Shown piece after piece: positions 23,263 to 24,489 of a DNA stretch of 24,489 bases. The translations under genes and the position numbers were made by a program. Under the pieces are notes generated by a model. That model was not told the origin of the DNA. It made no database searches and worked only from the letters and a program-made list of their open reading frames with translations. Numbering within the stretch: position 1 is the first letter of the stretch; the number at the start of each line of letters is the position of its first letter. Origin of the DNA: a virus; IMG/VR virus record IMGVR_UViG_3300006920_000238, positions 1 through 24,489 of that record; one strand, given 5' to 3'.

Positions 23263-23280
23263 AAGGAGGTGATCTTGATC
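23263..23280 (+). promoter_or_regulatory. Perfect anti-SD complement (copy 1 of a short repeat)
   Basis: AAGGAGGTGATC at 23263-23274 is an exact 12-base complement of the bacterial 16S rRNA 3' end, followed by TTGATC. A TTG five bases beyond GGAGG opens a 26-codon frame that runs through the terminator, but there is no convincing gene. A near-identical copy lies at 23905-23920. Confidence 0.6.
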
Positions 23281-23288
23281 TTAGAAAG

Positions 23289-23312
23289 CGGACTCCGAGG
23301 AGTCCGTTTTTT
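23289..23312 (+). terminator. Rho-independent terminator of the fibre operon
   Basis: An 8-bp stem (CGGACTCC / GGAGTCCG) with a minimal loop is followed by six Ts. It lies between the convergent fibre operon and the DUF1127 gene; on the minus strand only a weak CTTTCT follows, so it acts mainly on the plus strand. Confidence 0.88.
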
Positions 23313-23318
23313 AATGTC

Positions 23319-23459
23319 TTACGTGCCTCGGACTATCCGACGGATGTCACCCCGGTAGATACCCAGATCGTGGAGCTCACGATTGGTCAGTTGATTCAGT
23401 TCACGGATCGAGATGCGCTCTGCATTCCATCGTTCTATTTTTGCCATAATACGTTTCAT
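23319..23459 (-). CDS. DUF1127 (YjiS-like) small protein
   Basis: I place the start at the ATG at 23459, with AAGGAG seven bases upstream, giving 46 residues (MKRIMAKIERWNAERISIRE...). Upstream in-frame codons to 23552 lack an RBS and cross hairpins. The C-terminal half (LNQLTNRELHDLGIYRGDI, then RRIVRG) is a full match to the DUF1127 pattern 'L..L....L.DLG..R.DI'. Such very short, Arg-rich proteins are abundant in alphaproteobacteria; CcaF1 of Rhodobacter sphaeroides is an RNA-binding member that affects RNA turnover. It is read on its own, downstream of tRNA genes and convergent to the fibre operon. A role in taking over host RNA metabolism is inference. It could have been acquired from a host. 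Confidence 0.85.
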   Translation of the reverse strand: MKRIMAKIERWNAERISIRELNQLTNRELHDLGIYRGDIRRIVRGT

Positions 23460-23521
23460 TGATTTCTCCTTTTCTGGGGGCTGCCTACTCAACTTGAGCC
23501 AGGTGAACCAGAGGAGAAATT

Positions 23522-23536
23522 GCATAGCGGCTATGC
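23522..23536. repeat. Hairpin 1 upstream of the DUF1127 gene, 3-base loop
   Basis: GCATAG / CTATGC is a perfect 6-bp stem with a CGG loop. The size (5-7-bp stem, 3-base loop with a purine in the middle) resembles N4 virion-RNA-polymerase promoter hairpins, though the start-site bases of N4 are not seen. Confidence 0.6.
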
Positions 23537-23551
23537 GTATGATCACGGTCA

Positions 23552-23574
23552 TTCTGACGCTTTCAGCGTCAGAA
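23552..23574. repeat. Hairpin 2, 10-bp stem with 3-base loop
   Basis: TTCTGACGCT / AGCGTCAGAA is a perfect 10-bp inverted repeat around TTC (GAA on the minus strand). It has no T-run. It lies 16 bases from hairpin 1. Confidence 0.75.
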
Positions 23575-23602
23575 CTCCCTAATGGGTGTGATCGTTGTCA
23601 TT

Positions 23603-23618
23603 GGGTCACATATGACCC
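23603..23618. repeat. Hairpin 3, 6-bp stem
   Basis: GGGTCA / TGACCC with a 4-base loop; the core also contains CATATG. A short palindrome CCATATGG follows at 23628-23635. The segments before hairpins 2 and 3 are imperfect copies of one another (about 14 of 21 bases). Confidence 0.55.
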
Positions 23619-23660
23619 CTTATCCACCATATGGCGTCTTATCTGACACATATGGCCTTT

Positions 23661-23734
23661 TGGCATTGGTCCACAGAATCGAACTGTGATCTTCAGGTTT
23701 GGAAGCTGCTGTTCTGCCATTGAACTAGACCAAC
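23661..23734 (-). tRNA. tRNA-Trp (CCA), Gly-like body
   Basis: The minus strand folds into a cloverleaf: a 7-bp acceptor (GTTGGTC / GACCAAT, outer G-U), D-stem GTTC/GAAC, T-stem CACAG/CTGTG with TTCGATT, discriminator G and an encoded CCA end. The anticodon loop aligned to the stems is TTCCAAA, giving CCA (Trp); G73 fits Trp. The anticodon stem has only three pairs. The D-arm (GTTCAATGGCAGAAC) looks like tRNA-Gly, and a one-base shift would read TCC (Gly), but that register pairs badly. It may be partly degenerate. Confidence 0.7.
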
Positions 23735-23904: not shown

Positions 23905-23920
23905 GGAGGTAATCTTGATC
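23905..23920 (+). promoter_or_regulatory. Second copy of the SD-like repeat
   Basis: GGAGGTAATCTTGATC repeats 23265-23280 with one change. An ATG follows directly at 23921 and opens a 23-codon frame ending at 23992. GGAGG is 11 bases from that ATG, longer than usual. Read on the minus strand, the copy lies just after the start of the predicted tRNA-Tyr transcript. Confidence 0.5.
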
Positions 23921-23992
23921 ATGGGAAATCATTTAGTACAACTTCCCCTACCTGTCAAGCAGCGAAAGCCCGCCCACGTTTTTTGGCGCTAA
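23921..23992 (+). CDS. Possible 23-residue peptide after the SD-like repeat
   Basis: An ATG directly follows the second SD-like repeat and opens a 23-codon frame (MGNHLVQLPLPVKQRKPAHV..., ending FWR). The frame overlaps a promoter predicted on the opposite strand, and I recognise no family. The support is the SD-like element only, with a spacing longer than normal, so this may be chance. Confidence 0.2.
   Translation: MGNHLVQLPLPVKQRKPAHVFWR
23930..23958 (-). promoter_or_regulatory. Sigma70-like promoter for tRNA-Tyr, tRNA-Trp and perhaps DUF1127
   Basis: On the minus strand a consensus -35 TTGACA (23958-23953), a 17-base spacer and TAAATG (23935-23930) as -10 lie upstream of tRNA-Tyr. The -35 is perfect and the -10 weak. 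It suggests a host polymerase reads these genes. Confidence 0.5.
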
Positions 23993-24011: not shown

Positions 24012-24082
24012 CACCACCACCAGGATTTGAACCTGGATCTTCCCACGGACAATGTGGGGCTCTCCCATTGAGCTATAGTGGC
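24012..24082 (-). tRNA. tRNA with ambiguous anticodon (TGT Thr or GTC Asp)
   Basis: The cloverleaf has acceptor GCCACTA / TGGTGGT (two G-U pairs), D-stem GCTC/GAGC, T-stem CCAGG/CCTGG with TTCAAAT, and discriminator G. If position 26 is absent, the anticodon stem is a perfect CCCAC/GTGGG with loop ATTGTCC, giving TGT (Thr). If position 26 is kept, the loop reads TTGTCCG and the anticodon is GTC (Asp), with mismatches in the stem; G73 favours Asp. No CCA is encoded (GAG follows), unlike its neighbours. It begins two bases after the CCA of the Met tRNA. Confidence 0.65.
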
Positions 24083-24159: not shown

Positions 24160-24194
24160 ACAATTTGTTACCGTATCCATGAATATAAGTCAAT

Positions 24195-24274
24195 TCTCCT
24201 ACGCCCCACCCCCTCTGGTAGGAGATTTCACTACTCCTGTGCCATCTGACGCACGATTCTCCCACATATCGTGC
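24195..24274. repeat. Two hairpins with flanking direct repeat
   Basis: TCTCCTAC (24195-24202) pairs with GTAGGAGA (24218-24225) around a 15-base loop. GCACGAT (24251-24257) pairs with ATCGTGC (24268-24274) around a 10-base loop. The direct repeat CATCTGACGC overlaps the second hairpin at 24243-24252 and continues from it at 24274-24283. No T-run follows. Confidence 0.6.
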
Positions 24275-24276
24275 AT
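24199..24276 (-). CDS. Possible 25-residue peptide
   Basis: A minus-strand ATG at 24276 with GGAG six bases upstream opens a 25-codon frame (MHDMWENRASDGTGVVKSPT...). A further ATG at 24288 has AGGAG but only two bases away. The frame crosses the hairpins described above, so structure rather than protein may be what is conserved. No family is recognised. Confidence 0.22.
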   Translation of the reverse strand: MHDMWENRASDGTGVVKSPTRGGGA

Positions 24277-24359
24277 CTGACGCTCCATATCTCCTGTTTC
24301 AAAAACTTGACACGAATATCTCGAAAATCGTAGGGACGTAGCACGGCCCATTCGGTGGC

Positions 24360-24489
24360 TTAGGGAAAAGCTTGCCACAGGTCTGTCAGTAAACTGACAA
24401 CCGGTTGAGGCAGAGGAGCCTCAACAGTCTCCTTCGGAAAATCAATAGCATTTTCCTCACTCGACAACCCAAGAGAACAACTCCCAGGA
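24360..24489 (-). CDS. C-terminal fragment of a possible gene at the window edge
   Basis: A minus-strand frame enters from the window edge and ends at a TAA at 24362-24360 after 42 codons, with an ordinary-looking acidic and Pro-rich end (ENAIDFPKETVEAPLPQPVV, then a short hydrophobic finish LLTDLWQAFP). Codon use looks ordinary. The same DNA holds three perfect hairpins in a row, which makes a non-coding reading equally possible. No family is recognised. Confidence 0.4.
   Translation of the reverse strand, partial: PGSCSLGLSSEENAIDFPKETVEAPLPQPVVSLLTDLWQAFP
24384..24456. repeat. Three consecutive perfect hairpins
   Basis: TGTCAG / CTGACA (24384-24399, 4-base loop), GTTGAGGC / GCCTCAAC (24404-24425, 6-base loop) and GGAAAAT / ATTTTCC (24436-24456, 7-base loop) follow each other within 73 bases. 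No T-run follows them. They lie within the possible edge gene. Confidence 0.65.

What the first reader, a model, noticed from the sequence alone, without database searches (positions are those of the whole stretch)
23319..23459. Phage-encoded DUF1127 protein
A complete 46-residue DUF1127 (YjiS-like) gene with its own RBS sits in the accessory end of an N4-like phage. Host members such as CcaF1 bind RNA and alter RNA turnover. A phage version could redirect host RNA metabolism, or act on tRNAs encoded beside it. Acquisition from an alphaproteobacterial host is likely.
Basis: partly seen in the sequence, partly recalled or inferred. Interest (0 to 1): 0.6.

Follow-up and report, generated by a model that had tools for sequence, protein, structure and literature searches.

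The report
Phage DUF1127 gene beside tRNAs
A virus of marine-type bacteria carries a tiny bacterial regulatory gene (DUF1127) inside its cluster of transfer-RNA genes; the gene is real and looks taken from a bacterial host, but similar genes occur in hundreds of related virus sequences and nobody has yet tested what they do for the virus.

Summary
On the minus strand, 23459-23319 encodes a complete 46-aa DUF1127 protein (PF06568, 49.7 bits, cut-off 23.3) with a good Shine-Dalgarno, in the accessory end of a 24.5-kb fragment of an N4-like phage close to the Rhodovirinae. Substitutions against its nearest viral relative show purifying constraint. The closest host proteins found are Paracoccus DUF1127s. 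Phage DUF1127 is not rare: isolates of at least six unrelated phage types and several hundred viral contigs carry it, and some public phage records already bear the name. New here is the place: 11 Rhodovirinae isolates lack it, and it stands in a tRNA cluster that a relative (phiCB2047-B) has without it. A minority of other phages also have DUF1127 inside same-strand tRNA arrays or tRNA-repair gene rows; statistically the tRNA link is weak (p about 0.04 without the window). The 201-nt gap between tRNA-Trp and the gene is unusually structured. Function is inferred only: an RNA-processing helper of a protein-plus-noncoding-RNA transcript (like ccaF1-CcsR) is my leading guess, with sensor-kinase (PhoR) modulation a close rival. 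New member of a known kind; moderate to low interest.

The parts
23319..23459 (-). DUF1127 (YjiS-like) gene, 46 aa, ATG to TAA
   Evidence: PF06568 49.7 bits, cut-off 23.3; phrog_26566 E 1e-8; pN 0.23, pS 0.83 against L029; AlphaFold pLDDT 94.3, helices 2-22, 26-31, 36-44
23466..23471 (-). Shine-Dalgarno AAGGAG, 6 nt before the ATG
   Evidence: read from the sequence
23460..23660 (-). structured leader between tRNA-Trp and the gene: a chain of hairpins
   Evidence: 202-nt fold of 23460-23661 -78.5 kcal/mol, z -6.8; 160-nt windows z -4.3 to -5.0 against background mean -0.5, sd 1.05, lowest -4.2; no Rfam family
23462..23520 (-). last leader hairpin, in which AUUUCUCC pairs with the Shine-Dalgarno region GGAGAAAU
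   Evidence: MFE -21.6 kcal/mol; Shine-Dalgarno accessibility ranks only 4th-5th lowest of 18 genes, so regulation is inference
23522..23536 (-). hairpin GCAUAG-CCG-CUAUGC, weakly terminator-like
   Evidence: number of such sites in the region not above chance
23552..23574 (-). hairpin UUCUGACGCU-GAA-AGCGUCAGAA
   Evidence: exact copy elsewhere only in contig IMGVR_UViG_3300025645_002665
23661..23734 (-). tRNA-Trp (CCA)
   Evidence: ARAGORN, Rfam RF00005
23757..23842 (-). tRNA-Tyr (GTA)
   Evidence: ARAGORN
24012..24082 (-). tRNA-Thr (TGT)
   Evidence: ARAGORN, Rfam RF00005
24085..24159 (-). tRNA-Met (CAT)
   Evidence: ARAGORN, Rfam RF00005
23930..23958 (-). possible promoter TTGACA-N17-TAAATG ahead of tRNA-Tyr (weak, seen by eye)
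   Evidence: second hexamer matches 3 of 6, not listed by the scan
23289..23312 (.). terminator-type hairpin CGGACTCC-GA-GGAGTCCG then TTTTTT on the + strand, between the convergent tail gene and DUF1127 gene
   Evidence: read from the sequence; the simple scan did not list it
23265..23287 (+). direct repeat copy 1 (GGAGGTGATCTTGATC...), downstream of the DUF1127 gene
   Evidence: family D2
23905..23927 (+). direct repeat copy 2 (GGAGGTAATCTTGATC...), upstream of tRNA-Tyr; the two copies bracket tRNA-Tyr, tRNA-Trp, leader and DUF1127
   Evidence: family D2

Best explanation
SHOWN: a genuine DUF1127 gene in the tRNA locus of an N4-like phage related to the Rhodovirinae, on the same strand as four tRNA genes, behind a strongly structured leader, and evolving under purifying constraint. 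LIKELY: acquired from a Rhodobacteraceae host. INFERRED mechanism: the tRNAs, the structured leader and the DUF1127 mRNA form one transcript; the arginine-rich helical protein (9 Arg of 46, pI 11.2) binds structured RNA and promotes its cutting and turnover by host RNase E, helping to mature the phage's tRNAs and structured RNA and shifting host RNA turnover. This would be a phage counterpart of the ccaF1-CcsR protein-plus-noncoding-RNA operon of Rhodobacter. Co-transcription, RNA binding and RNase E involvement are all untested for this protein.
For: Gene identity. Same-strand tRNAs, the nearest 201 nt upstream. Leader structure beyond background. Same arrangement in other phages: in L029 the tRNA-Arg begins right after the DUF1127 stop codon, among 8 tRNAs; L110/L109, L117, L138, L159 have 9-18 tRNAs, the nearest on the DUF1127 strand; Rhizobium phage RHph_I1_18 has CCA-adding enzyme, DUF1127, tRNA-His guanylyltransferase, RNA ligase and polynucleotide kinase in a row. 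CcaF1 is co-transcribed with four sRNAs, promotes their RNase E maturation, and such loci are frequent in alphaproteobacteria (PMC10253847). Constraint.
Against: Only a minority of phage DUF1127 genes lie near tRNAs: 6 of 89 distinct sequences within 350 nt; combined position test p 0.044 without the window, 0.021 with it, on an incomplete tRNA list. Cobaviruses keep DUF1127 between mazG and ribonucleotide reductase with no tRNA near. The CcsR hallmark CCUCCUCCC is absent here. The leader has no diverged relative, so its structure has no covariation support. Other DUF1127 proteins act on sensor kinases (PMC12501420), and YjiS showed no RNA partners (PMC11707872).
Confidence: 0.4

Rival explanations
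1. Sensor-kinase modulator. The phage protein binds host PhoR (or a similar kinase), as Agrobacterium SDPs and E. coli YjiS do, and resets phosphate uptake during infection. Its position beside tRNAs is incidental.
For: Direct PhoR binding by three methods, and cross-species complementation by DUF1127 proteins of Sinorhizobium, Rhodobacter (CcaF1 included) and E. coli (PMC12501420). Cobaviruses place DUF1127 near mazG and phoH. The core residues are invariant across phage copies of all contexts.
Against: Loss of host DUF1127 raises phosphate uptake, so an extra copy should lower it, which is not an obvious gain for a phage. No phosphate gene was seen in this window. Nothing here tests the interaction.
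Confidence: 0.3
2. Passenger or mild-benefit cargo. tRNA loci of large phages collect small host genes; DUF1127 arrived with or into the tRNA cluster, perhaps by recombination between the GGAGGTNATCTTGATC repeats, and has no dedicated role with tRNAs.
For: Absent from 11 Rhodovirinae isolates; phiCB2047-B has the tRNA cluster without it; two direct repeats bracket the tRNA-Tyr, tRNA-Trp, DUF1127 segment; tRNA arrays of other phages hold many other small ORFs.
Against: Purifying constraint and uptake by several phage lineages point to a benefit of some kind. The repeat pair is short and may be chance.
Confidence: 0.2
3. The leader, not the protein, is the main point: an attenuator or sensor that switches DUF1127 on when ribosomes or charged tRNAs run short, as reported for a Sinorhizobium DUF1127 gene.
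For: Leader fold z -6.8; Shine-Dalgarno paired in the last hairpin; a DUF1127 gene of S. meliloti is controlled by leader attenuation (PMC12218461).
Against: The S. meliloti case needs a translated upstream ORF and Rho; no matching upstream ORF was shown here, and Shine-Dalgarno pairing is not exceptional among genes of this phage. No covariation data exist.
Confidence: 0.1

Closest known systems
CcaF1 of Rhodobacter sphaeroides (71 aa) with the CcsR1-4 sRNAs (CIN1-type locus)
   Same: DUF1127 domain; gene on the same strand as adjacent noncoding RNA genes; arginine-rich
   Different: Here 46 aa only; RNAs are tRNAs plus an unclassified structured leader, placed upstream not downstream; no CCUCCUCCC motif; in a phage; RNA binding and co-transcription untested
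Small DUF1127 proteins SDP1-3 of Agrobacterium and YjiS of E. coli (PhoR-binding)
   Same: DUF1127 domain; the SDPs are likewise hardly more than the domain
   Different: Phage gene; kinase binding untested
PHROG 26566 and other phage DUF1127 proteins (Sinorhizobium phiM12/phiM19, cobaviruses SIO1 and P12053L, HMO-2011-type CRP phages, RHph_I1_18, Atu_ph07, Ochrobactrum OC, Methylophilales Melnitz)
   Same: All match PF06568 over its cut-off where scanned, and PHROG 26566; already in public databases, some named DUF1127 or YjiS-like
   Different: None is N4-like; only some are near tRNAs
tRNA cluster of N4-like Sulfitobacter phage phiCB2047-B
   Same: Same genomic place beyond the tail genes, and tRNA-Met, Tyr, Trp in the same order
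   Different: 14 annotated tRNA genes and no DUF1127

Membership tests
DUF1127 (PF06568) | Profile match over the curated cut-off | tested here: met
   49.7 bits against 23.3, full model 1-37
DUF1127 (PF06568) | Short, arginine-rich, helical protein with the conserved D-[IL]-G-[IL] core | tested here: met
   46 aa, 19.6% Arg, pI 11.2; DLGI core with L21, E28, L29, D31, G33, R36, I39 invariant; helical model pLDDT 94.3
CcaF1-CcsR type (CIN1) locus | Protein gene co-transcribed with CcsR-like sRNAs bearing CCUCCUCCC loops (motif from own knowledge) | tested here: not met
   No CCTCCTCCC within one mismatch near the gene; no sRNA family found; co-transcription not testable
CcaF1-like RNA-binding protein | Binds RNA and affects RNase E processing | not testable with these tools
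   Needs co-immunoprecipitation or binding assay
PhoR-binding small DUF1127 proteins | Direct binding of PhoR and repression of pst genes | not testable with these tools
   Needs two-hybrid, pulldown or complementation
SAM domain (PF00536), considered | Score over cut-off and SAM fold | tested here: not met
   20.2 bits, under the cut-off of 23; no supported SAM match in the structure comparison (p73 C-terminal domain only at E 9.9, TM 0.30)
N4-like phages (Schitoviridae, near Rhodovirinae) | Virion RNA polymerase, N4 gp68-like terminase, N4-type portal | tested here: met
   phrog_2206 virion RNA polymerase, phrog_1216 portal, terminase about 70% identical to Rhodovirinae; subfamily assignment by tree not done, record is a fragment

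The most novel reading that the evidence does not exclude
Phages have repeatedly taken a host DUF1127 gene into their tRNA arrays and tRNA-repair operons to make a phage-run RNA-processing unit: the small protein guides RNase E to mature long phage tRNA/noncoding transcripts and retunes host RNA decay, with its own structured leader as target or control.
Probability: 0.2. Interest if true: 0.65.

Novelty: new member of a known kind. Interest (0 to 1): 0.36.

Why it matters
DUF1127 proteins are disputed: RNA binders or sensor-kinase binders. Phages of several lineages have picked the domain up, so phage copies show which minimal form is useful during infection and give small natural test proteins (46 aa, core only) for settling RNA against PhoR binding. 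If the tRNA link is real, it would also point to a helper for maturing phage tRNA arrays. As it stands, the gene is an uncharacterised accessory gene of a kind already present in public phage records.

Tried and rejected
General tRNA association of phage DUF1127: not supported broadly, weak in the position test. DUF1127 as a standard gene of N4-like roseophages: rejected, absent in 11 isolates; no N4 terminase in 33 DUF1127 contigs (an empty search without a positive control, and many contigs are fragments). Leader as a known RNA family: none. Cuckoo/CcsR motif: absent. SAM-domain kinship: several phage members score weakly, host copies hardly do, and the fold comparison does not back it; left as a curiosity. 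Strict RBS sequestration: pairing exists but is not exceptional in this phage. Longer 77-aa start at 23552: no good ribosome site. V13 gp75 at the same place as a diverged DUF1127: no. Host scan with the first alignment failed for lack of a conserved stretch. Scan for related leaders found only one identical contig. Phylogeny of about 42 columns resolves little.

Full report
WHAT IS THERE. The minus-strand frame 23459-23319 encodes 46 residues ending in TAA with AAGGAG six bases before the ATG. Pfam DUF1127 matches across its full length, 49.7 bits against a cut-off of 23.3, and PHROG 26566 matches at 1e-8. The AlphaFold model is confident (mean pLDDT 94.3): helices 2-22, 26-31 and 36-44. Compared with the nearest viral relative (contig L029), pN is 0.23 and pS 0.83; the L031/L110 pair of other phages gives dN 0.09 and dS 0.71. 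The frame is a real gene.

CONTEXT. The window is an entire IMG/VR record of 24,489 bases, a linear fragment. Late genes run leftward (virion RNA polymerase, portal, terminase), then three rightward tail or structural genes, then the DUF1127 gene and four tRNA genes on the minus strand. The terminase is about 70% identical to Rhodovirinae phages of Dinoroseobacter, Ruegeria and Sulfitobacter. Sulfitobacter phage phiCB2047-B carries a 14-tRNA cluster at the corresponding place with tRNA-Met, Tyr and Trp in the same order. So the DUF1127 gene stands inside a tRNA locus that this phage group also has without it. It is absent from 11 Rhodovirinae isolates searched whole with the Pfam model. The only near-copy found is a 5.7-kb contig whose sequence is identical across the gene and its leader.

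THE LEADER. Between tRNA-Trp and the start codon lie 201 bases that fold far better than shuffles (z -6.8 for 23460-23661). In 160-base windows the minus strand reaches z -4.3 to -5.0; 120 background windows from the rest of the phage average -0.5 with a lowest value of -4.2. The final hairpin pairs the Shine-Dalgarno region. Its accessibility is only fourth or fifth lowest of 18 genes, so I do not claim a riboswitch or attenuator. No Rfam family matches, and no diverged homologue turned up in the collections searched, so covariation could not be tested.

HOW COMMON. tblastn against 50,697 phage records finds DUF1127 in Sinorhizobium T4-type phages, cobaviruses, HMO-2011-type CRP phages, Rhizobium RHph_I1_18, the jumbo phage Atu_ph07, Ochrobactrum OC and Methylophilales Melnitz phages, confirmed with the Pfam model in those rechecked. 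BFVD already holds phage proteins named DUF1127 or YjiS-like. The phage gene is therefore not new as such. I found no held paper on its role in phages.

THE tRNA LINK. Of 89 distinct phage DUF1127 sequences, six lie within 350 bases of a tRNA (L029, L159, L117, L110, L138, L109), with the nearest tRNAs on the same strand, in arrays of 8 to 18 tRNAs; two of these (L109, L110) are one lineage. In L029 a tRNA-Arg starts right after the DUF1127 stop codon, and L029 is also the viral protein most like the window's, 72% over 36 residues. RHph_I1_18 has DUF1127 between a CCA-adding enzyme and a tRNA-His guanylyltransferase, followed by RNA ligase and kinase genes. Against this, the large cobavirus group and most others have no tRNA near. 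A uniform-position test over 20 records gives a combined p of 0.021, or 0.044 without the window. That test used a truncated tRNA list and some short contigs, so I call it suggestive only.

ORIGIN. The best matches in the plasmid collection are Paracoccus DUF1127 proteins, 53-56% identical, E down to 1e-8, better than any named phage. The tree groups the window with Paracoccus copies, one viral contig and HMO-2011-type phages at SH-aLRT 81, which is weak with 42 columns. Phage copies need about eight label changes, at least two forced by strongly supported branches, so phages probably gained the gene more than once.

FUNCTION. Two experimental lines exist for host proteins. CcaF1 is co-transcribed with four sRNAs, binds RNA and promotes their RNase E maturation (PMC10253847). 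Agrobacterium and E. coli proteins bind PhoR and hold down phosphate uptake, and CcaF1 itself complements that defect (PMC12501420); YjiS showed no RNA partners (PMC11707872). The phage gene's company (tRNAs, structured leader; tRNA-repair genes in RHph_I1_18) tilts me toward the RNA reading at 0.4, with PhoR at 0.3. Shown here: gene, constraint, context, leader stability. Inferred: co-transcription, RNA binding, RNase E, host effect.

VERDICT. Observation confirmed, interpretation partly supported, new member of a known kind, interest 0.36.

Noticed in passing
window 23265-23287 and 23905-23927 (+): A 23-base direct repeat (83% alike, GGAGGT[GA]ATCTTGATC core) brackets tRNA-Tyr, tRNA-Trp, leader and DUF1127; on the minus strand it resembles the 3' end of 16S rRNA (GATCACCTCC). 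Could mark a mobile segment or be a regulatory site.
   Followed up: partly
window 23322-23459 (protein residues 13-44); alignment A4: Weak but repeated sequence resemblance of phage DUF1127 proteins to SAM domains (7 of 17 members; PDB hits to CNK2 SAM, best E 0.0005), not supported by the structure comparison.
   Followed up: partly
L004 995-4900 (Rhizobium phage RHph_I1_18): DUF1127 sits in a row of tRNA repair genes (CCA-adding enzyme, Thg1, RNA ligase, polynucleotide kinase), which looks like a counter to host tRNA-cutting defences.
   Followed up: no
L029 2066-2608: A protein in the tRNA array near DUF1127 reads like a Pth2-type peptidyl-tRNA hydrolase (by eye; PHROG 1866 has no function name).
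   Followed up: no
L007 4678-7162, L010 3756-6180: Cobaviruses keep DUF1127 tightly between mazG and ribonucleotide reductase; in SIO1 the gene is not annotated at all.
   Followed up: no
L262 1-1641 (Paracoccus methylovorus plasmid p2): A close host DUF1127 lies near phnD, a phosphonate/phosphate transporter gene, with a DeoR-type regulator between.
   Followed up: no
window 24160-24489: Beyond tRNA-Met the minus strand holds further hairpin-rich, apparently non-coding sequence up to the contig end.
   Followed up: no
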